From: Microbacterium suwonense
GTDB taxonomy: Bacteria; Actinomycetota; Actinomycetes; Actinomycetales; Microbacteriaceae
Reading direction: 5' to 3'
Assembly: GCF_030296555.1 (NCBI RefSeq)
Contig: NZ_AP027728.1
Span: 620,001-684,000 of the forward strand
Length of the DNA stretch: 64,000 bases
Every line of letters begins with the position of its first letter. The stretch's first letter is position 1. Below are positions 36,996 to 45,273 of the stretch, piece after piece. The translations under genes were made by a program, and so were the position numbers. The notes below the pieces were generated by a model. The model ran no database searches, had not been told where the DNA came from, and saw only the letters and a program-made list of their open reading frames with translations.

Positions 36996-37068
36996 TCCTC
37001 GGTAGCTCAATTGGCAGAGCAGCCGGCTGTTAACCGGCAGGTTCTTGGTTCGAGTCCAAGCCGGGGAG
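36996..37068 (+). tRNA. tRNA-Asn (GTT)
   Basis: This is a 73-base tRNA. The acceptor stem is TCCTCGG (36996-37002) with CCGGGGA (37061-37067), one T-G wobble, discriminator G. The anticodon stem GCCGG/CCGGC frames the loop CTGTTAA, anticodon GTT. The T arm is CTTGG-TTCGAGT-CCAAG. No CCA is encoded. The 3' 34 bases are part of the att core, so the 3' half was supplied by the integrated element; the gene remains intact. Confidence 0.97.
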
Positions 37069-37338
37069 CGCATGAAGCCCCGTCCCCGGGTCATCCTGGG
37101 GCGGGGCTTCTCCCGTCTCCAGCCAGCGCACCGGGTAGCCGGTCGCCATGGCGAACGCGACGAGATCGCGACGGCGCGGCTTGTGCCGGCCGTTGATCCA
37201 ACTGCTGACCGCATTTCGGGAGACCTGGAGCCGGTCGGCGATCTCCTGTACGCCTATGCCGGTGTGTCGCAGTGCCATGTACATGCGCAGCGGAAGATCG
37301 ACCTCGAAGCGCGGGTCGTGTGCTGTGTTCATGCTCAT
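37030..37338 (-). CDS. HTH repressor whose 3' end spans the att core
   Basis: This is a Cro/CI-type helix-turn-helix protein, likely the lysogeny repressor. The prophage form has 102 residues. The HTH covers about residues 18-75 (GVQEIADRLQVSRNAVSSWINGR), followed by GYPVRWLETGE. The C-terminus ALPGLDSNQEPAG is encoded antisense across the att core; the last Gly codon and the TAA stop come from the host tRNA. In the circular form, rebuilt from the right end (45210-45238), residue 102 onward would read VIRLMRSAA, giving 110 residues. Starts at 37338 or ATG 37332 are both possible. A perfect palindrome lies 10 bases upstream. Confidence 0.85.
   Translation of the reverse strand: MSMNTAHDPRFEVDLPLRMYMALRHTGIGVQEIADRLQVSRNAVSSWINGRHKPRRRDLVAFAMATGYPVRWLETGEAPPQDDPGTGLHALPGLDSNQEPAG
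37035..37069 (+). repeat. attL core
   Basis: This is the 35-bp exact direct repeat of 45239-45273, comprising the tRNA-Asn 3' part from the anticodon stem through the discriminator plus one base. It is the left junction of the prophage. The antisense strand also encodes the end of the repressor gene. Confidence 0.95.
37074..37110 (+). terminator. Element-supplied terminator hairpin downstream of tRNA-Asn
   Basis: GAAGCCCCG (37074-37082) pairs with CGGGGCTTC (37102-37110), and CCCC (37084-37087) pairs with GGGG (37098-37101), with one bulged T. It lies 5 bases after the tRNA and can end its transcript. It sits inside the antisense repressor coding region. Confidence 0.65.
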
Positions 37339-37347
37339 GGCTCAATT

Positions 37348-37361
37348 GTGACACTTGTCAC
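37348..37361. promoter_or_regulatory. Operator palindrome O1
   Basis: GTGACA (37348-37353), CT, TGTCAC (37356-37361): a perfect inverted repeat between the repressor and the rightward genes. It overlaps the -35 box of the rightward promoter. A near-copy is at 39323-39336. It is the likely binding site of the HTH repressor (inference). Confidence 0.75.
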
Positions 37362-37445: not shown

Positions 37446-37664
37446 GTGACGATGCTGAGTGCGGATGTGCCGGTTGCTGAGCTGCTGACGACTGCGGAAG
37501 TCGCGCGGCGTGTGGGGGTCGTGCGGTGGACGGTCTGTCGTGCTGTCGCGGACGGCGAGCTGCGGCCTGTGGCGAAGTTGCCTGGCGTGAATGGGGCGTA
37601 CCTGTTCACGGAGGCGGCTGTTGTTGCGTGGCGGTCGCCGGGTGAGCGGTTGGTGTCGCTGTGA
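37446..37664 (+). CDS. Xis-like MerR-type helix-turn-helix protein
   Basis: This is a 72-residue protein with a winged HTH of the excisionase/HTH_17 type (LLTTAEVARRVGVVRWTVCRAV ... GVNGAYLFTEAAVVAW). Proteins of this shape next to integrases act as recombination directionality factors or as transcription regulators. The start is GTG 37446 or ATG 37452. Its stop overlaps the next gene by 4 bases (GTGA). It is first in the early operon. Confidence 0.75.
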   Translation: MTMLSADVPVAELLTTAEVARRVGVVRWTVCRAVADGELRPVAKLPGVNGAYLFTEAAVVAWRSPGERLVSL

Positions 37665-37819: not shown

Positions 37820-38097
37820 GCGGGTTGGAGTGCCGGCATCTGAACGGGCTGGCGTATGGCGGGTACGCGCTGTGCTTTGACTGCGGGGCGGAGTCTGGGC
37901 CTGACCCGGCGCCGGCGCCTGCGCCGTCGATCGTTGCGCAGCGGCTGGAGGTGGTCGGTGTGATCGCGCGGGGCCGGCCCTCGGGGCCGTCTGGTGAGGC
38001 GGTGCTGTGTCCGGTGTGCACGCGTCCGGTATCGAGTCTGCACGCGTTGACGGCGCACGCTGTGGCCGCGCATCCGGTGCCTGAGGCGGTCGCCTGA
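37816..38097 (+). CDS. Small zinc-finger protein (93 aa)
   Basis: No family recognised. GTG 37816 gives 93 residues with an N-terminal CxxH/CxxC-like cluster (CRHLNGLAYGGYALCFDCG) and a C-terminal C2H2-like finger (CPVCTRPVSSLHALTAH). An Ala/Pro linker separates them. The stop overlaps the Rep start (TGATG), so translation is probably coupled. It may bind DNA and assist Rep or copy control (inference). Confidence 0.62.
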   Translation: MSGLECRHLNGLAYGGYALCFDCGAESGPDPAPAPAPSIVAQRLEVVGVIARGRPSGPSGEAVLCPVCTRPVSSLHALTAHAVAAHPVPEAVA

Positions 38098-39323
38098 TGG
38101 CGGTTCGTTTCGGTGGCGACGCGTCAGCGTCGGCCGGACTTGGTACACATGCGAAGTCGGTAACCCGCTCTCGGGACTTCCGGGCGTTGCGGCGGCTGCG
38201 CTTCGCGCGCCGCGCTCAGTCCTCGGCTTGGCTGCTGGCCGATAGCGCCGATCTGCATGGTGAGGGGCCGGCGTCGCGTGAGCTTGCGCCGCGTGTGGCT
38301 AAATGCGGGTGGGCGATCGCGGCCGGTGTTGGTGTGCATAAGCGCGAGGGTGGCGCGGCTCGGTTCTCGGGCGTGGCGCACTGCGGGAGCATCTGGGGGT
38401 GCCCGACGTGCTCGGCGGTGATCCGTAATCGGCGCGCGGAAGAGGTCACGGCTGCGTCGGAGTGGTGGCGGGGCGAGCGGGATGGGGCGTTCCTGTTCGT
38501 GACGTTCACGGCCAGGCACAAGATGGGCGACCCGCTGAAGGATTCGCTGTCGGCGTTGACGGGGGCATTTACGCGGCTGATTCGGGGTGCGCCGTGGAAG
38601 CGGTTTGCGGCGCGGATGGGCATCGCGCACATGATCAAAGCGGTCGAGGTCACGCTGTCCTGGCGTAATGGATGGCATGCGCATCTGCATGTGCTGTGGT
38701 TCACGGATCGGGAGGCGTCCAGGAGCGCCCTGGAGGACGCGCAGGGCTGGCTGGCGGCTCGGTGGGCGGACATGGTTGTCAAGGAGGGCGGACGGCGCCC
38801 AGACGACGTGCACGGGGTGAATGTGCGGCGGGTGCAGGACGGGCGGATCGTGTCGCAGTACCTGACGAAGCTGCAAGAGGCTGAGCCTGACCGGCCGCGT
38901 GGCTGGGACTTGGCTGCAGAGATGACGCGGATCGATTCGAAGAAGGGCCGGCTTGAGTCGCTGGTGCCGTTCGATCTGCTCGACGTCGACGGGATGAGCG
39001 AGGAAGAGCAGCAGCGTGCGCGTGAGCATTGGGCCGAGTTCGTCGCGGTCACGAAAGGCCGGCGCGCGATGACCTGGTCGCGGGGCCTGAAAGACGCTGC
39101 GGGTATCGACGAGCTCGACGATGACGAGATTGTCGCGGAGGCTGAGCCATCTGCTGAGGATGACGATTTGGTGGTCGTGATCCATCGCCGGGACTGGATG
39201 CGGATGCAGCACGATCCCGACAAGGTGGCGCGGGTGCTGGAGTTGGTCGAGCAGGGCCGTTTGGACGAGTTGCTGAGCGTGGTGGCGTTCATGTATCCGG
39301 CTGAGGCTCACGCGCGCGAATAG
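38097..39323 (+). CDS. rep: Rolling-circle replication initiator, Rep_1-like HUH endonuclease
   Basis: This is a HUH endonuclease that nicks the origin to start rolling-circle replication. The 408-residue product carries the upstream CGSIWGCPTCSAVIRNRR cysteine motif of Rep_1 proteins at about residue 95. Motif I is FVTFTARH, motif II (HUH) is GWHAHLHVLWF, and the catalytic tyrosine motif is VSQYLTK. It has an acidic C-terminal region (DELDDDEIVAEAEPSAEDDD). It occupies the pII position of filamentous phages and could equally serve a plasmid, but the genes following are phage-like. Its stop overlaps the operator O2. Confidence 0.88.
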   Translation: MAVRFGGDASASAGLGTHAKSVTRSRDFRALRRLRFARRAQSSAWLLADSADLHGEGPASRELAPRVAKCGWAIAAGVGVHKREGGAARFSGVAHCGSIWGCPTCSAVIRNRRAEEVTAASEWWRGERDGAFLFVTFTARHKMGDPLKDSLSALTGAFTRLIRGAPWKRFAARMGIAHMIKAVEVTLSWRNGWHAHLHVLWFTDREASRSALEDAQGWLAARWADMVVKEGGRRPDDVHGVNVRRVQDGRIVSQYLTKLQEAEPDRPRGWDLAAEMTRIDSKKGRLESLVPFDLLDVDGMSEEEQQRAREHWAEFVAVTKGRRAMTWSRGLKDAAGIDELDDDEIVAEAEPSAEDDDLVVVIHRRDWMRMQHDPDKVARVLELVEQGRLDELLSVVAFMYPAEAHARE

Positions 39324-39336
39324 TGACATTTATCAC
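39323..39336. promoter_or_regulatory. Operator palindrome O2
   Basis: GTGACA (39323-39328), TT, TATCAC (39331-39336): the same inverted repeat as O1 with one arm mismatch and a different central pair. It begins in the Rep stop codon and overlaps the -35 of the next promoter. Confidence 0.72.
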
Positions 39337-39358: not shown

Positions 39359-39401
39359 TGGTCGCATCCCCGGTGCAGGGGTCACAGGGAACGGAGTGGA
39401 A

Positions 39402-39773
39402 ATGGCTATCGGAATCAAGGTCGATCCTCGGATCGTCGCGGCGGGCAAGGTCGTCGCGGTGCAGGAGCGCACGGAGCGTGTCTCGGACGCGGATCGTGCT
39501 GCGGGGCTGGTCGGGAAGGTGGAGCGGCACGACGTGCTGCTGTCTCAGCCGCATGGCGGGCAGCTCGTGGTCAGGTTCCGTGTTCGTGACAAGCTGCCGG
39601 TGCCCACGCCGGGCGAGTTCGTCGCCGTCGATGCGAGCGTGTCTGAGGGCTCGTTCCGTGGGGAGAACGGCGAGACGATCAGCTTCGTGTCTCTGGTCGC
39701 TGTCGGGCCGGCGTATGACGCGCTCGACGCGATCCAGTCGGCCCTGTCCGCTTCGGCTCCCTCGGGGAAGTAG
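39402..39773 (+). CDS. Putative ssDNA-binding protein (pV-like)
   Basis: This is a 123-residue protein with a beta-rich middle (HDVLLSQPHGGQLVVRFRVRDK) and no membrane segment. Position directly after Rep matches gene V of filamentous phages, which coats newly made ssDNA. ATG 39402 has GGAG 5 bases upstream; a GTG at 39396 is an alternative. The sequence does not itself prove ssDNA binding; the call depends on synteny. Confidence 0.58.
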   Translation: MAIGIKVDPRIVAAGKVVAVQERTERVSDADRAAGLVGKVERHDVLLSQPHGGQLVVRFRVRDKLPVPTPGEFVAVDASVSEGSFRGENGETISFVSLVAVGPAYDALDAIQSALSASAPSGK

Positions 39774-40074: not shown

Positions 40075-40169
40075 CTGTTGGTGACGTCCTCCAGGGGCTG
40101 TTGTTGCTTCTGGGTACTGGCGCGCTGGTCGGGCTGTTCCGTTCGGTGCTGGGTATGGGGAGGGGGTGA
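40071..40169 (+). CDS. Tiny membrane protein 4 (32 aa)
   Basis: MTVGDVLQGLLLLLGTGALV then a short basic tail (FRSVLGMGRG), one helix. It is the last of four tandem tiny membrane genes and is immediately followed by the coat-like gene. Confidence 0.6.
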   Translation: MTVGDVLQGLLLLLGTGALVGLFRSVLGMGRG

Positions 40170-40174
40170 AAAGT

Positions 40175-40342
40175 ATGGATCCGATTTCGTTCGATTTCTC
40201 GGGTGTCACGGATGCGCTGGCGGCGCTCGGCCCGGCTGTCGTGGGTGCTGGCGCGGCTGTGATCGCTGCCGGTGTCGGCGTCGCTGCTGTGATGTGGGGC
40301 GCGCCGAAGCTCATCGGTCTGTTCAAGAAGACCGCGAAGTAG
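40175..40342 (+). CDS. Major coat protein-like (pVIII-like), 55 aa
   Basis: The 55-residue protein has an acidic N-terminus (MDPISFDFSGVTD), a hydrophobic middle rich in Ala/Gly/Val (AVVGAGAAVIAAGVGVAAV) and a basic C-terminus (LFKKTAK). This is the charge pattern of filamentous phage coat proteins, where the basic end contacts DNA and the acidic end faces outside. No signal peptide is seen, as in phage Pf3. ATG 40175 lies 6 bases after GGTGA; an in-frame GTG at 40166 is possible. A terminator hairpin follows, as after gene VIII of Ff phages. Confidence 0.72.
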   Translation: MDPISFDFSGVTDALAALGPAVVGAGAAVIAAGVGVAAVMWGAPKLIGLFKKTAK

Positions 40343-40351
40343 CGGCACGTC

Positions 40352-40388
40352 GATGCGCCCCGTGCTCCGTCTCGGTGCGGGGCGCATC
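40352..40388 (+). terminator. Central terminator after the coat-like gene
   Basis: GATGCGCCCCG (40352-40362) pairs perfectly with CGGGGCGCATC (40378-40388), a 15-base loop between, followed by TGTTTC. It is analogous in position to the central terminator of Ff phages, which raises coat expression over pIII. Confidence 0.75.
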
Positions 40389-40394
40389 TGTTTC

Positions 40395-40428
40395 CCGGGC
40401 CGCCTTGTGTGTATGCGAGGCGGCCCGG
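40395..40428 (+). repeat. Second hairpin upstream of the adsorption-like gene
   Basis: CCGGGCCGCC (40395-40404) pairs perfectly with GGCGGCCCGG (40419-40428) around a 14-base loop. It may be another terminator, an RNA element, or a DNA hairpin such as a packaging signal or origin. Confidence 0.6.
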
Positions 40429-40457
40429 ATTCGTTCATACATCTGAAAGGTTGCATT

Positions 40458-42299
40458 GTGCGCTGGTTGGGTAGGGCTCTCGCGGTTGTGGCAATTGCTG
40501 TTGCGGCCGGGGTGGCTGTGCCGAGCAGTGCGAGCGCGCTTGTGGCCGTCGATCCTGTTGCGCCGGTGCCTGAGTTGACGTCGCGGTATTTGTCGCTGGT
40601 GGGGAGCACCGGCGCGTTGTCCTATCCTGATCTGCTGCATGCTGAGCGTACGGCGCGGGTTGCCCCGAAGCCGATTACGCCGCCGGCTAAGTTCGTAAAG
40701 CCCCCGATTGATGGTGGTGCTGTCGGGGTTGCGTTGACGTCGTTCATGGCTGGGTGGGGTATCGGTCAGGGTGGGATTGCGTTGTATGCGGCCGCGCATG
40801 ATGACACGTACGAGGATGTGATGTGTCGGCAGCCGGGCTGGTGGCGGGGTGTGAATGATTTCATCACGTTCGGGTTGAGTGCGACGGATTGCACTGGCAC
40901 GGTGGTTGAGCCGAATGCTGATGCTCATACGGGGTTTACGCCTATTCGTGTGGGCGATTTCGAGCGCATCTATCTGGGGACGCACGTGGACACTGGCAGC
41001 GGGACTACGTATGCGTGCTGGCTTGCCACAGGGGCGGCGCCGCAGACGTTGACGCCGTTGGGGCTCAGGCCGGTGGTGATGGGGGAAGACGGGGTATGGG
41101 TGTATTCGACGGGCTTCGGTGTTCCGGTCGATGGGGGCCCGTACGCGGGTCGCTACTGTGGGCGGCCTGATTCGTCCATTGCCCGTGAACAGTTGTGGTC
41201 GACGGGGGCGGTGCCTCCGGTGCGGGTGATCAGGATCGATACTGGCGAGGTTGTGGCGGAGGCGCTGCCGCTTTCGGGTGACCCTGTGCGTACTCCTCGG
41301 TGTGAGATCACCTGGGAGGACGGCACGACGACGACGGGTACGGGAACGGATTATCAGGAGTCCGTGGGGCTGCCGTTGTCTGCTGCGGGGCTGGGGTGTG
41401 AACAGGCGTACGTGTCGAAGCCGGGCGCGGGCCCGGACTTGCTGCCGTCCAAGATTGATGTGGAGTCTGAGGACACGGAGAGTGGTGCGATTACCGAGAT
41501 TTCGTCGCAGGAAGTTCCCTCGTTCGGGCCGGATCAGCGTAAGGGTCTGACGCCGGGAAACGGGGCCGGCCTGGTGCTTGAGAAGGTCGTGAATAAGGTC
41601 ACGGATAGCTGCAACTCGTGGACGCCGGATTGCTCGGGCTGGTGGGAGCAGACGGGCCACGGGACGCAGGGCGAGACGGACACGGGCACGTATCGGTGCA
41701 CGTACGGCGGTGCGGTGGTCGATCTGGGTGAGTGCTCGCCGTACCGGGGCACGTTCGAGACGAAGACCAGCACTCCGACGATCACTGATCCGGCGACGGG
41801 CACGGAGGTGGACTGGAGTTCTAGTCCGATGAATTCCACCGATCCGACGGTGGGCCCGACCCCGGGCGAGGTCTGCATGTCGGAGTGGGGCTCGGCGGCG
41901 AACCCCATTGAGTGGGTGCTGCAGCCGGTCAAGTGCGCGATGGTCTGGGCATTCGTGCCGCGCACGGACGTGATGGTGGAGGCGCAGACTGCGATTGCTG
42001 AGGCGTGGGAGCCGACGATCGTCGGCCAGTTGCCTGGCGTCGTGGCTGCGGCCGTGTCTGTCCCGAACGGGGGCAGTGGGTGCCTTGGGCCGCATGTGGT
42101 CATTCCGATTCATCTGGGCGATCTCGATACCGGCTATGACGGTTATCCGTTGTCTGCGTGCGATGCGCCGTTCGATGTGCTGGCGACGTGGGCGCGGGTT
42201 ATCGGGTCGGCGGTGCTGATCTGGCTGACCGGGCTGGGTATCATTCGCCGTTCGTCGGCGATCGTGAACGCGCCTGGGCTGGGAGGGGGCTCCGCATGA
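40458..42299 (+). CDS. pIII-like adsorption/tail protein with signal peptide and C-terminal TM
   Basis: The GTG at 40458, preceded by GAAAGG with 7-base spacing, gives 613 residues. A signal peptide (RWLGRALAVVAIAVAAGVAV, cleavage near ASA-LV) is followed by a secreted domain with about a dozen cysteines and many Gly/Thr/Trp, probably disulfide-linked. A C-terminal transmembrane helix follows (VIGSAVLIWLTGLGII, about residues 580-596). This is the topology of filamentous phage pIII, which anchors in the membrane before assembly and binds the host receptor. There is no clear sequence homology to proteobacterial pIII. The stop overlaps the next start (ATGA). Confidence 0.7.
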   Translation: MRWLGRALAVVAIAVAAGVAVPSSASALVAVDPVAPVPELTSRYLSLVGSTGALSYPDLLHAERTARVAPKPITPPAKFVKPPIDGGAVGVALTSFMAGWGIGQGGIALYAAAHDDTYEDVMCRQPGWWRGVNDFITFGLSATDCTGTVVEPNADAHTGFTPIRVGDFERIYLGTHVDTGSGTTYACWLATGAAPQTLTPLGLRPVVMGEDGVWVYSTGFGVPVDGGPYAGRYCGRPDSSIAREQLWSTGAVPPVRVIRIDTGEVVAEALPLSGDPVRTPRCEITWEDGTTTTGTGTDYQESVGLPLSAAGLGCEQAYVSKPGAGPDLLPSKIDVESEDTESGAITEISSQEVPSFGPDQRKGLTPGNGAGLVLEKVVNKVTDSCNSWTPDCSGWWEQTGHGTQGETDTGTYRCTYGGAVVDLGECSPYRGTFETKTSTPTITDPATGTEVDWSSSPMNSTDPTVGPTPGEVCMSEWGSAANPIEWVLQPVKCAMVWAFVPRTDVMVEAQTAIAEAWEPTIVGQLPGVVAAAVSVPNGGSGCLGPHVVIPIHLGDLDTGYDGYPLSACDAPFDVLATWARVIGSAVLIWLTGLGIIRRSSAIVNAPGLGGGSA

Positions 42300-42571
42300 T
42301 TTCTGAGTTCTTCGTGAATCTTGCGGCTGGTTTCGTGGGGTGGTTGGCGGGGCTGTTCGGGGAGTGGACGCCACCGGATGCGCTGACAGATATGGCGAGC
42401 AGCGCGAACGATTTGGTGGTCGAGTTCGCGTCTCTTGGCGTCTGGGTCGATTGGGGTGTTCTGTCTGGGTGTGTGGCTGCGGCGTTGGCGTCGTGGGCTG
42501 TCGTGCTCGTTGTCAAAGTGGTGCGTGCTCTCGCGGCCCATGTACCTGTGATTGGGGGCGCTGGTGACTGA
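42296..42571 (+). CDS. Small membrane protein, pVI-like (91 aa)
   Basis: This is a 91-residue protein with an N-terminal hydrophobic helix (FFVNLAAGFVGWLAGLFG) and a second at about residues 55-80 (CVAAALASWAVVLVVKVVRAL). It follows the pIII-like gene and precedes Zot, the exact place of gene VI. It overlaps both neighbours. Confidence 0.65.
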   Translation: MISEFFVNLAAGFVGWLAGLFGEWTPPDALTDMASSANDLVVEFASLGVWVDWGVLSGCVAAALASWAVVLVVKVVRALAAHVPVIGGAGD

Positions 42572-43402
42572 CGTGCTGGCGGTGGATGATCTGTCGGTAT
42601 TCGATGATCTGGAAGAGACCGGGCTGGAGGAGGTAGAGGCTCCGCAGGAGACTCTGCCTCCTCGCCCGGTCTCCCTGGTCGGTGGAAGTCGAAAGGCAGC
42701 AGGGCGCGGCGCGGATTCACGATTCACGCGTATATCGGCGCGAATGGGCACGGTAAGAGCCTGGCGATGATGCACGACACGAAGCTGTCGATTGAGCTCG
42801 GTCGGCCGATCCTGTCCACGGTGCGGGTGGTTGACCCGCGTACGGGCGAGGACTATGCCGGCTATGTTCCGTTTCGTCGTTGGGATCAGTTGCTGTCCTT
42901 CGAGGGTGGTGATGTGCTGATGGATGAAGTGATCGGGATCGCGGCATCCGAGCAGGGCAAGAGCCTGCCGAAAGAGGTTCAGTTGTTCCTCAATCAGCTT
43001 CGTCGGCGTGACGTGCTGCTGCGGTGGACGGCGCCGGCGTGGTCGCGGGCGAACATCGTGCTTCGGGAGGTTACGCAGGCGGTGACTGTGTGCCGTGGGT
43101 ATCTTGCGAAGTATGAGAACTCGGGTGATGGGTCGCGGCTGTGGGGTAATCGTCGGTTGTTCCGATGGACGACGTATGACGCGATGGATTTCAGCACGTG
43201 GACGGACTCGAAAGAGGGCCAGCTCAAGGGGAAGGCGAATGCGTGGTTTTGGCGGCCTGGGTCGTGGGCTGAGCGCTCCTATGACACGTTCGATTCGGTC
43301 GATCACGTCGATACGGGGGAGGGCGTGTGTCTGCATTGTGGTGGCGAGCGTCCGAAGCTCAAGCGTCCGGTCTGTACGTGCCCGGTGGAGGGGCACGCGT
43401 GA
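42564..43402 (+). CDS. zot: Zot-type (pI-like) assembly ATPase (frameshifted)
   Basis: This is a P-loop ATPase of the Zot/pI group that drives filament extrusion. The C-terminal frame has Walker B (DVLMDEVIG) and RRRDVLLRWTAPAW. Walker A (GANGHGKS) lies upstream in this frame at about 42737-42757. The start GTG 42564 (VTDVLAVDDLSVFDDLEE) is in another frame and meets it near 42677-42680; one missing base (CTGGTC as CTGGGTC) would restore RWKSKGSRARRGFTIHAYIG. The corrected length is 279 residues. Unlike proteobacterial Zot, no C-terminal TM is visible, and the C-terminus holds CLHCGG ... CTCP, a zinc-ribbon-like cluster. Confidence 0.8.
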
Positions 43403-43987: not shown

Positions 43988-44143
43988 TCATGCGTCGTTC
44001 TTGGAAGGGAAGAGCCAGTTGACTGCGTACAGCACGCCGGCGACGAATGTTTCGCGCTGGGTCTCGCACTCGTTGCAGTTGCATGTGCCGTATCGGCGTG
44101 TCCATTCCTCGCGTGCCTTGCTCTCATCCGTGTGGTCGCTCAT
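43988..44143 (-). CDS. Small CxC-rich protein (51 aa)
   Basis: ATG 44143 is preceded by AGAGGA. The product MSDHTDESKAREEWTRRYGTC... contains CNCNEC, a possible metal site, then FVAGVLYAVNWLFPSKNDA, a weakly hydrophobic tail. Family unknown. It is read opposite to the structural operon, in the same direction as int. Confidence 0.5.
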   Translation of the reverse strand: MSDHTDESKAREEWTRRYGTCNCNECETQRETFVAGVLYAVNWLFPSKNDA

Positions 44144-44375
44144 GTTGGTGAATCCTCTCGTTGTTGCTTCGTGTCGAAGGGGCTTGACCCTTCGGCACAC
44201 CTGCCGAGAAGTAAGCGGAGCGGTGCGGGTCAACCCCTGTGGCTGGGTCGGCCTGGCAAGGTGCGGAGCACCATCGTTGCGGGAGACTGTGGGCCGGTTC
44301 GTGGGTTGACGCGTGCCGTGGAGCGAACTACTTGCTCGGCGTGAGTCGCTGATGTGACGCTGCAGCGTGGTTTTC
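44144..44375. other. Non-coding region before int
   Basis: No gene is supported here. A minus-strand promoter for the 51-residue gene should lie near 44150-44200. The origin or an arm site of the element could also be in this stretch, but no diagnostic motif is visible. Confidence 0.4.
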
Positions 44376-45194
44376 TTATGCGGGGGTGAGGCTGAGCCGT
44401 GATGCGGCCGCGACGGTGGCGAGGTCGTCGCCGGTGATGTGCACGTAGCGCTGGGTGGTGACGAGGCTGGCGTGTCCGAGCATCGCTTGGATTGCGCGGA
44501 GGTCGTGGGTCTGTTTCCATGCGGCGGTGGCTCCGGCGTGGCGGAGGCTGTGGGGGTTCCAGCCGGTGACGCGGGTGATGATCTTGTTCACGCTGACGGG
44601 GTGTAGGTGGGGGAGGTTGCCTCGTTGGATGCGGCGGGGGAAGTAGTAGCCGGGGCCTTGCTCGTGTTCGAGGGTGTCGAGTGCGGTTGCGACTTCGGCG
44701 TTCATCGCGATGATGCGGGGCTTGCGGCCTTTGCCGATGATGTGCAGTTCTTGGCCGTGGCGGTTGTTGGTGTGCAGGGATGCGATTTCGGAAAGGCGCA
44801 TCCATCCGCCTCGGGCGAGCAGGATCAGGGCGCGCTGTTGCGGTGTGGCGCGGGTGAGGGCTTGGCGGATGTCGTCGTCTGGTGCGACGCGGGGTGAGGG
44901 TGCGGGGATGCGGATTTTCTGTAGTTGCGTGGTGGGGTTGTCGGGTCTGTGTCCGCGTCGGTGTGCCCAGGTGAAGAACAGCCTCCAGGAGCCGGTGAGG
45001 CTCTTGCGGGTCTCGGGCGCGTGGTGGCGGTGCGCGGCGAGGATTTCTGTGAGCTCGTCCTCGGTGATTGTGGTGAGCTCGTGCTGCTCGGCGAGCTTGC
45101 GGATGTCGCGGAGGCGGAGGCGGACTGTCGCGTCGCTGCGGTCGGAGGCGAGAAGCCAGATCTTGTACTGGTCGATGAGCTGAATGTTATTCAC
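44376..45194 (-). CDS. int: Tyrosine-type integrase
   Basis: This is a site-specific recombinase of 272 residues. It has an N-terminal SAM-like core-binding domain (about 1-95) and a catalytic domain with RLSEIASL (Arg I), the Lys in GKGRKPR, HSLRH (His-x-x-Arg), GHASL, and TTQRYVHI (Tyr nucleophile). It is of the small XerC-like type with no large arm-binding domain. GTG 45194 starts MNNIQLIDQYKIWLL. In the circular form it would lie 15 nt downstream of the repressor stop in the same direction. In the prophage it is cut off from that promoter. Confidence 0.92.
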   Translation of the reverse strand: MNNIQLIDQYKIWLLASDRSDATVRLRLRDIRKLAEQHELTTITEDELTEILAAHRHHAPETRKSLTGSWRLFFTWAHRRGHRPDNPTTQLQKIRIPAPSPRVAPDDDIRQALTRATPQQRALILLARGGWMRLSEIASLHTNNRHGQELHIIGKGRKPRIIAMNAEVATALDTLEHEQGPGYYFPRRIQRGNLPHLHPVSVNKIITRVTGWNPHSLRHAGATAAWKQTHDLRAIQAMLGHASLVTTQRYVHITGDDLATVAAASRLSLTPA

Positions 45195-45238
45195 TATTTC
45201 AGCGTGTCGTTACGCGGCAGAGCGCATTAACCTGATAA

Positions 45239-45273
45239 CGGCAGGTTCTTGGTTCGAGTCCAAGCCGGGGAGC
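45239..45273 (+). repeat. attR core
   Basis: This is the 35-bp copy of the tRNA-Asn 3' end at the right junction, identical to 37035-37069. Host sequence (CAACCCC...) follows. Upstream 45216-45223 shares GGCAGAGC with the tRNA at equivalent spacing, but the intervening anticodon arm has no pairing, so no functional tRNA is present. Confidence 0.93.

What the first reader, a model, noticed from the sequence alone, without database searches (positions are those of the whole stretch)
37030..37338. Repressor gene contains the att core: integration changes its C-terminus
On the minus strand the repressor frame runs through the att core. In the prophage the last codons give ...SNQEPAG, with the stop in the host tRNA. 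Joining the core to the right arm (45238 down to 45210) gives ...SNQEPAVIRLMRSAA, nine other residues ending in Ala-Ala. Mycobacteriophages such as BPs, Brujita and Giles use this plan: attP lies in the repressor gene, the phage form carries a degradation tag, and integration removes it. The Ala-Ala end is compatible with a ClpXP-type degron. A switch of this type on a filamentous-phage-like element appears undescribed.
Basis: partly seen in the sequence, partly recalled or inferred. Interest (0 to 1): 0.95.

Follow-up and report, generated by a model that had tools for sequence, protein, structure and literature searches.

The report
Filamentous prophage's integration-dependent repressor switch
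A filamentous-phage-like element in a Microbacterium chromosome sits in a tRNA gene so that its repressor gene runs through the attachment site and ends inside the tRNA; the circular virus form would instead give the repressor a longer tail ending in two alanines, predicted to mark it for destruction, so the virus is likely silenced only once it has integrated, a plan that our literature searches found described only for tailed phages.

Summary
The 102-residue HTH repressor (37030-37338, minus) reads through a 35-bp att core and stops inside the host tRNA-Asn, antisense to the anticodon. Joining core to right arm predicts a 110-residue form ending VIRLMRSAA. Relatives make this a pattern: in 20 elements whose attL and attR could be rejoined, 13 predicted circular-form repressors end in Ala and 4 in Ala-Ser, against 0 of 20 integrated forms and 3 of 37 readings of the same arms in other frames. 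Of 19 isolated tailed phages, 16 repressors end in Ala and 2 in Ala-Ser. The repressor belongs to the family (phrog_2328) of phages described as using integration-dependent immunity. What differs is the carrier: an 8.2-kb element with Rep and Zot related to filamentous phage B5. Three further filamentous elements carry this repressor; the two whose second end was found also give Ala-Ala tails. So: a known tailed-phage switch on filamentous phages, probably gained more than once. Degradation, immunity and the attP junction are untested, and this copy's Zot frame is interrupted.

The parts
36996..37069 (+). host tRNA-Asn(gtt), whole at attL
   Evidence: ARAGORN
37035..37069 (.). attL common core, 35 bp
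   Evidence: exact direct repeat
37030..37338 (-). repressor, integrated form, 102 aa; HTH domain then a tail predicted disordered
   Evidence: HTH_3/HTH_31, phrog_2328 E 1.5e-22 over residues 8-101, AlphaFold2 helices 15-75, pLDDT under 50 at 82-89 and 92-102
37030..37032 (-). stop codon of the integrated form, antisense to tRNA positions 35-37
37348..37361 (.). candidate operator GTGACACTTGTCAC between repressor and HTH gene
   Evidence: perfect 6-2-6 palindrome (one of 4 in the element); same GACA..TGTC core as the BPs 12-bp palindrome CGACATATGTCG quoted in PMC4557955
37446..37664 (+). divergent small HTH protein (excisionase/Cro-like)
   Evidence: HTH_17 above cut-off, phrog_66 excisionase E 3.5e-6, TIGR01764 just below cut-off
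38097..39323 (+). rolling-circle-type Rep
   Evidence: PF01446 Rep_1 E 4.3e-12; tblastn to B5 Orf9 E 8e-18
39323..39336 (.). second candidate operator GTGACATTTATCAC before the 125-aa ORF and structural genes
   Evidence: one mismatch to the first site
39396..39773 (+). 125-aa ORF; no database family; place suggests ssDNA-binding protein (inference)
   Evidence: no hit
40166..40342 (+). 58-aa major-coat-like protein
   Evidence: PF05356 Inovirus coat B E 4.7e-4, below curated cut-off
40353..42299 (+). long ORF, minor-coat-like by place and by homologues in other zot-bearing loci
42296..42571 (+). 91-aa hydrophobic ORF between minor coat and Zot
   Evidence: frame open in ORF 42158-42571; start codon read
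42767..43402 (+). Zot-like morphogenesis protein, C-terminal part; N-terminal part lies in another frame
   Evidence: tblastn to B5 Orf8 39.5%, E 2e-38; frames
44376..45194 (-). short tyrosine integrase (272 aa), ends ...SLTPA
   Evidence: PF00589 E 4.5e-19
45210..45238 (-). right-arm DNA that would encode the circular-form tail VIRLMRSAA and stop, 15 bp before the int start
45239..45273 (.). attR common core, 35 bp

Best explanation
This is a filamentous-phage-like prophage whose repressor gene contains the att core, so that integration would replace a predicted 110-residue repressor, likely degraded because it would end in Ala-Ala, by a 102-residue form that ends inside the host tRNA and is likely stable. 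Shown: the att cores, the tRNA, both reading frames in the DNA, the repressor's family, the filamentous-type genes, and the same end pattern across relatives. Inferred: in the circular (replicative) form the repressor and int genes would stand 15 bp apart on one strand and be co-transcribed from the repressor promoter; the long repressor would be removed by a host protease (ClpXP is the likeliest; clpX, two clpP-like genes and a tmRNA tag ending FALAA are present), leaving the Rep and structural genes on. Integration would remove the tail, give a lasting repressor that binds the palindromes at 37348 and 39323, shut the element down, and cut int off from its promoter. The host's Asn anticodon supplies the new stop codon.
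For: Geometry. Family: phrog_2328 E 1.5e-22 over 8-101; the annotated repressors of BigNuz and Emperor score 6.9e-46 and 2.7e-36 in the same PHROG; 245 phage records match, 153 Mycobacterium and 64 Gordonia. Tail pattern: of 20 rejoined elements 13 circular-form repressors end in A (10 in AA), 4 in AS, 3 otherwise; 0 of 20 integrated forms end in A or AS; the same arms in the other two frames give 3 of 37 A-ends, 0 AA (Fisher P 1.1e-5). Background on 18 of the 20 elements: 12.1% A and 2.1% AA in 24,395 random-frame readings; 55 of 267 A and 19 AA among other ORFs, integrases included. Ten natural long forms, picked by eye: 9 A, 1 AS. Nineteen isolated phages: 16 A, 2 AS, 1 other; of the two AS, Rabbs has a 136-residue repressor like BPs gp33, for which PMC4557955 reports that A135E stabilises the long form. 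Filamentous kin: G028 (8.0 kb) ...RYLYAA, G497 (8.2 kb, tRNA-Thr) ...RYGAAA. Host: tmRNA tag ANTKRNDFALAA, ClpX, two ClpP-like (under the curated cut-off). Tail predicted disordered. Empty site.
Against: The circular form was never seen for this element; its tail is a join of attL and attR. No stability, immunity or transcription data exist. Three of 20 rejoined tails end otherwise (G453 PRRC, G565 KLLV, G461 TVSV), and one natural long form, P0015 (RATG), was left out of the counts; with it the A/AS total is 27 of 31. The integrases of this element (LTPA) and G028 (SLLR) lack the Ala-Ala end that many relatives have. The candidate operator was not found in 15 other loci searched, among them G028, G497 and G427. 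The Zot frame of this copy is interrupted, so it may no longer make virions. Ten of 14 zot-bearing loci in the sampled genomes show neither the repressor nor a tRNA in the fetched stretch.
Confidence: 0.83

Rival explanations
1. Incidental read-through: the repressor frame merely lacks a stop before the tRNA, and the two tails have no function; int insertion at tRNA 3' ends forces antisense-tRNA peptides on any gene that points at them.
For: Antisense-tRNA peptides such as LDSNQEP are common where genes run into tRNAs (recalled); three of 20 rejoined tails and P0015 do not fit; the tail is predicted disordered and outside the HTH fold.
Against: A-ends are 13 of 20 in frame against 3 of 37 in the other frames of the same arms, while the tail sequences are otherwise diverse; isolates show the same end; for BPs the tail is reported to cause degradation (PMC4557955, abstract and introduction).
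Confidence: 0.1
2. Uncoupling only: the att position matters because integration separates int from the repressor promoter, and the change of tail is a by-product.
For: The long form's stop and the int start would be 15 bp apart here, and lie within 60 bp or overlap in 11 of the 20 rejoined elements.
Against: Does not explain the recurring Ala ends; in the other 9 elements int starts 119-472 bp away, yet 8 of these 9 tails end in Ala or Ala-Ser.
Confidence: 0.04
3. Dead remnant: the element has decayed (interrupted Zot frame), so the switch, once real, no longer works here.
For: Zot N- and C-parts lie in different frames, while the Zot matches of G028 and G497 lie in stop-to-stop frames of 310 and 320 aa, against 264 here.
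Against: att cores are identical over 35 bp, and the repressor, int, Rep and tRNA frames are open; a shift in one gene could also be recoding or a sequencing error.
Confidence: 0.2
4. The 102-aa protein is a Cro- or excisionase-like regulator, not the immunity repressor.
For: Only an HTH domain is present; no experiment on this protein.
Against: Best family is a repressor PHROG that also holds annotated phage immunity repressors; the divergent gene 37446-37664 is the excisionase-like one.
Confidence: 0.05

Closest known systems
Integration-dependent immunity of mycobacteriophage BPs and clusters G, I, N, P (Caudoviricetes)
   Same: attP inside the repressor ORF, attB in a tRNA gene, repressor next to int on the same strand, longer virus form with an ssrA-like end, 35-bp core, repressor family shared with matching phages
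   Different: carrier is an 8.2-kb element with filamentous-phage Rep and Zot instead of a tailed phage; integrase here lacks an Ala-Ala end; virus release would be non-lytic (inference)
Tailed Actinobacteria phages of about 16 kb (Gordonia phages Emperor, SallySpecial, Coeur); Bifidobacterium Bb423phi2 in PMC6109161
   Same: same kind of repressor in a small genome, native long form ends in Ala; for Bb423phi2 the paper reports a rejoined long form with an ssrA-like tag (passages)
   Different: tail and head genes; G159 and G033 of my set carry terminase genes, while no terminase-like gene was found among the ten window-element ORFs scanned
Propionibacterium filamentous phage B5 (Bifilivirus, Tubulavirales)
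   Same: Zot (39.5%) and Rep (27.6%) homologues; order coat-size ORF, long ORF, about 90-aa ORF, Zot
   Different: the B5 record lists 10 ORFs, all on the plus strand, and so nothing like the window's minus-strand repressor and int
Known filamentous-phage repressors (RstR of CTXphi, Pf4 repressor C)
   Same: small HTH repressors that keep a filamentous prophage quiet (recalled, no call)
   Different: no att site inside the gene is known to me (recalled); not compared by a call

Membership tests
Integration-dependent immunity system (BPs type) | attP core lies within the repressor reading frame | tested here: met
   35-bp core 37035-37069 lies within the repressor ORF 37030-37338
Integration-dependent immunity system (BPs type) | attB overlaps a host tRNA gene that stays whole | tested here: met
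   tRNA-Asn 36996-37069; empty site in G040 and G094
Integration-dependent immunity system (BPs type) | host sequence ends the integrated form early | tested here: met
   TAA antisense to tRNA 35-37; 102 versus 110 aa
Integration-dependent immunity system (BPs type) | virus form ends in an ssrA-like tag | tested here: met
   predicted end ...MRSAA by joining attL and attR; pattern in relatives. By sequence only
Integration-dependent immunity system (BPs type) | the tag causes proteolysis; integrated form is stable | not testable with these tools
   needs half-life measurement
Integration-dependent immunity system (BPs type) | repressor and int in one operon in the virus form | tested here: met
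   same strand, 15 bp apart after joining; by arrangement only, transcription not measured
Integration-dependent immunity system (BPs type) | integrase also carries a C-terminal tag | tested here: inconclusive
   window int ends LTPA, G028 SLLR, G497 TLAA; the isolates Kareem and Rabbs end VAGF and Typha RYQT, so an Ala-Ala end is not universal by sequence
Integration-dependent immunity system (BPs type) | repressor of the same protein family | tested here: met
   phrog_2328 shared with BigNuz and Emperor repressors; tblastn to Kareem and Rabbs gp33 at E 3e-5 to 5e-5. BPs gp33 itself was not fetched
Integration-dependent immunity system (BPs type) | superinfection immunity by the integrated form | not testable with these tools
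   needs a plating test
Filamentous phage (Tubulavirales, B5-like) | Zot-type morphogenesis ATPase | tested here: met
   39.5% to B5 Orf8, E 2e-38; frame interrupted in this copy
Filamentous phage (Tubulavirales, B5-like) | rolling-circle Rep | tested here: met
   PF01446 and B5 Orf9
Filamentous phage (Tubulavirales, B5-like) | small hydrophobic major coat protein | tested here: inconclusive
   58-aa ORF, PF05356 E 4.7e-4 below cut-off; homologue in filamentous contig L063
Filamentous phage (Tubulavirales, B5-like) | filamentous virions | not testable with these tools
   needs microscopy

The most novel reading that the evidence does not exclude
A genetic switch of tailed double-stranded-DNA phages has crossed into filamentous single-stranded-DNA phages, more than once, so that a virus which leaves its host alive reads its own DNA state: circular DNA makes a short-lived repressor and a running virus factory, integrated DNA makes a lasting repressor whose stop codon is written by the host tRNA's anticodon.
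Probability: 0.6. Interest if true: 0.82.

Novelty: new variant of a known kind. Interest (0 to 1): 0.72.

Why it matters
Integration-dependent immunity has been described for tailed actinobacterial phages, where the unintegrated state ends in lysis. On a filamentous element the unintegrated state would be chronic, non-lytic virus production, so the same protein-stability switch would govern a quite different life cycle. It suggests that the repressor-attP-int cassette moves as a unit between unrelated viruses, and it gives a simple, testable reporter (two short tails) for protease control of a filamentous phage in Gram-positive bacteria. The tail pattern also offers a way to find such elements in genomes: a repressor whose frame ends in an antisense tRNA, and a partner arm that ends in Ala.

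Tried and rejected
Viral-contig scans with the window's Rep (none confirmed) and the Rep alignment A3 (16 contigs, 6 of them with a Zot match) gave no tRNA and no repressor of this family (L172 and L173 have a weak HTH match, E 6e-5 to 9e-5); the Zot scan gave three contigs L063-L065, likewise without them. The window's palindrome was sought in 15 other loci and not found; in the first 220 bp upstream of the repressor, G427 has a different palindrome, G028 and G497 none with 6-bp arms. A natural circular form of a filamentous element with this repressor was not found; P0005 (natural long form...EQHAA, linker like the window's) sits on a 1,266-base contig whose element type cannot be told. A hydrophobic motif ([IVL][IVL]x[LI]) in the tails (10 of 20; shuffled mean 2.7, 0 of 5000 shuffles as high) was defined after looking at the tails, so the figure is not a test; 9 of 19 isolates carry it near the end, without a control. 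Plain antisense-tRNA read-through was rejected on the frame control.

Rows dropped: of 40 loci oriented (L002 looks like the same element as G159) 20 gave no usable repeat and are not in the rejoined counts; some end at contig edges, and several (for example G007, G065, G875, G885) show no recognised tRNA at the repressor stop. G328 and G632 rest on 15-bp repeats; G565 on a repeat 35 kb away. The ten natural long forms were picked by eye after their tails had been seen, and P0015 was left out. Two of the 19 isolates, Berka and BlueFeather, list no integrase in the fetched stretch; several isolates are near relatives of one another. The tree used 59 rows; G417, G565, L002 and four isolates were left out, and 7 of 16 homologues were put in.

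Full report
What is there. The window is part of a 3.16-Mb chromosome of the genus Microbacterium: G028, placed in the same genus, has the contig length of Microbacterium sp. ASV81 (529,486 bases). A tRNA-Asn gene lies at 36996-37069. Its last 35 bases recur exactly at 45239-45273 and bound an element of about 8.2 kb. Left to right it holds a repressor (minus), a small divergent HTH protein, a 93-aa ORF, a rolling-circle Rep, a 125-aa ORF, a 58-aa coat-like ORF, a long minor-coat-like ORF, a 91-aa ORF, a Zot-like gene, small ORFs, and a 272-aa tyrosine integrase (minus). Rep and Zot match Orf9 and Orf8 of the filamentous Propionibacterium phage B5 (27.6% and 39.5%), whose coat-size ORF, long ORF, 90-aa ORF and Zot follow one another in the same order.

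The observation. The repressor frame passes through the att core on the minus strand. In the integrated state it ends ...LDSNQEPAG and stops at 37032-37030, antisense to tRNA positions 35-37, which include two anticodon bases. Joined to the right arm it would end ...LDSNQEPAVIRLMRSAA, 110 residues. The stop of the long form (45210) would lie 15 bp before the int start (45194) on the same strand. Related genomes show the empty site (G040, G094).

Is the tail more than chance? I collected relatives by repressor homology, without regard to tails: 40 loci in all (the window; 12 from Microbacterium with E up to 4.1e-17; 15 from the family sample; 6 from the class sample; 5 viral contigs; one Mycobacterium MAG). 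In 25 of 40 the repressor stop lies inside a recognised tRNA (Asn, Val, Lys, Thr, Arg or Ala; my count). In 20 of 40 a direct repeat of 15 bp or more (30 bp or more in 18) allowed the circular form to be rejoined. Of these 20 long forms 13 end in Ala (10 in Ala-Ala), 4 in Ala-Ser and 3 otherwise, while 0 of the 20 integrated forms end in Ala or Ala-Ser. The same right arms read in the other two frames give 3 Ala ends of 37 and no Ala-Ala (Fisher P 1.1e-5). On 18 of the 20 elements, random frames give 12.1% Ala and 2.1% Ala-Ala (24,395 readings) and other ORFs, integrases included, 55 Ala and 19 Ala-Ala of 267. Ten natural long forms, picked by eye (P0005, P0009, P0011, P0012, P0016, L003-L006, G613), give 9 Ala and 1 Ala-Ser; an eleventh, P0015, ends ATG and was not counted there. 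Some tails are related (G159 and G189 nearly share theirs), so the probabilities are approximate.

A yardstick from isolated phages. I used 19 tailed phages that match the repressor (a twentieth, prophiT36-2a has its repressor cut by the record end and was not used). In these records 16 of 19 repressors end in Ala, 2 in Ala-Ser, 1 (Berka) otherwise. The two Ala-Ser ends are of Kareem and Rabbs (Liefievirus); Rabbs' repressor has 136 residues, like BPs gp33, which was not fetched itself. PMC4557955 (outline, introduction and passages read) reports that BPs gp33-136 is degraded through an ssrA-like tag and stabilised by A135E, so an end of this type probably works there. PMC9262239, PMC6109161 and PMC9934374 (passages read) describe the same plan in further tailed phages.

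Filamentous kin. A Zot-profile search found matches in 5 of 366 Microbacterium genomes and 8 of 398 sampled family genomes, the window's genome being in both counts; 14 loci in all. Four of 14 (window, G028, G427, G497) carry the repressor running into a tRNA (Asn, Asn, Ala, Thr). In the other 10 neither the repressor nor a tRNA was found in the fetched stretch. G427's second end was not found; its Zot match lies at a contig edge. The two others, G028 (8,009 bp) and G497 (8,155 bp), give long forms ending RYLYAA and RYGAAA. So the three filamentous elements that could be rejoined all end in Ala-Ala.

Descent. In a repressor-domain tree (59 rows, 75 columns, bootstrap not settled) the four filamentous repressors do not form one clade, and well-supported branches force at least three changes (gains or losses) of the filamentous label. 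The repressors of the window and of G028 sit, apart from each other, in a 16-row group with G159 and G033, which carry terminase genes. I read this as repeated transfer of the cassette between tailed and filamentous phages, with the caution that such a short protein resolves little and that the nearest rows (P0004, P0006) are of unknown element type.

Mechanism. The repressor is predicted to fold as five helices (15-75) followed by a tail of low confidence (mean pLDDT 73), so a tail change should alter stability more than DNA binding; for BPs both forms are reported to bind alike (PMC4557955 abstract). The host has a tmRNA tag ANTKRNDFALAA, ClpX and two ClpP matches (E 5e-72 and 9e-71, under the curated cut-off). 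A perfect palindrome GTGACACTTGTCAC lies 9 bp upstream of the repressor start, and a copy with one mismatch precedes the 125-aa ORF and the structural genes; its GACA..TGTC core is that of the BPs palindrome. I did not find it in 15 other loci searched, the filamentous ones among them, so the operator assignment is weak. Int here ends LTPA and in G028 SLLR, while G497's ends TLAA.

Against. No circular form of this element was seen; no stability or immunity data exist; three rejoined tails and P0015 do not fit; the Zot gene of this copy is split between two frames, so the element may be damaged or may use recoding.

Literature. Searches for inovirus with integration-dependent immunity (one review, which mentions filamentous phages in passing), filamentous phage with integration-dependent (two papers; the same review, and a Roseobacter phage paper of which I saw only the listing), inovirus with repressor and ClpXP (none), inovirus with Microbacterium and integrase (three; in the actinobacterial genome survey PMC9903846 the passages on inoviruses concern prophage detection; PMC3094311 seen only in the listing), and wider searches (18 papers; two; 40 papers, 20 listed; listings only, apart from the review) showed no filamentous case. 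The library holds open-access papers only, and the original 2013 Mol Cell paper was not read.

Verdict. It works like BPs-type integration-dependent immunity and shares every sequence feature tested, the integrase end being inconclusive; the new part is the filamentous carrier.

Noticed in passing
window 42552-43402 (+): The Zot-like gene is split: the N-terminal ORF (42552-42770) and the Walker-A and C-terminal part (open from 42611, first ATG 42767) lie in different frames, while G028 and G497 have longer single frames. Mutation, sequencing error or recoding.
   Followed up: partly
rejoined tails: Ten of 20 circular-form tails hold a hydrophobic motif such as VIRL, IVVL or VIAL before the Ala end; it may be a second part of the degron or a DNA-level constraint of the attP arm. 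Motif defined after seeing the data.
   Followed up: partly
window 37030-37032: The stop codon of the integrated repressor is antisense to the tRNA-Asn anticodon region (positions 35-37), so a normal tRNA-Asn(gtt) would supply it.
   Followed up: yes
L148 (G270 contig C484), also L183 and L184: Rep-bearing contigs of 7.9, 11.1 and 5.8 kb (L148 also with Zot) with 99- to 127-base terminal repeats, probably circular; no tRNA and no match to the window's integrase or repressor.
   Followed up: no
G374, contig C1 near 90 kb and 3538 kb (L149, L150): Two zot-bearing loci with the same match score in one chromosome.
   Followed up: no
G234 contig C1, 247007-247137 and 250773-250819: A second copy of the tRNA-Asn 3' end 3.8 kb downstream, suggesting another small element at the same site.
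   Followed up: no
window 43988-44233 (-): Small ORF with a CNCNEC motif between Zot and int, function unknown.
   Followed up: no
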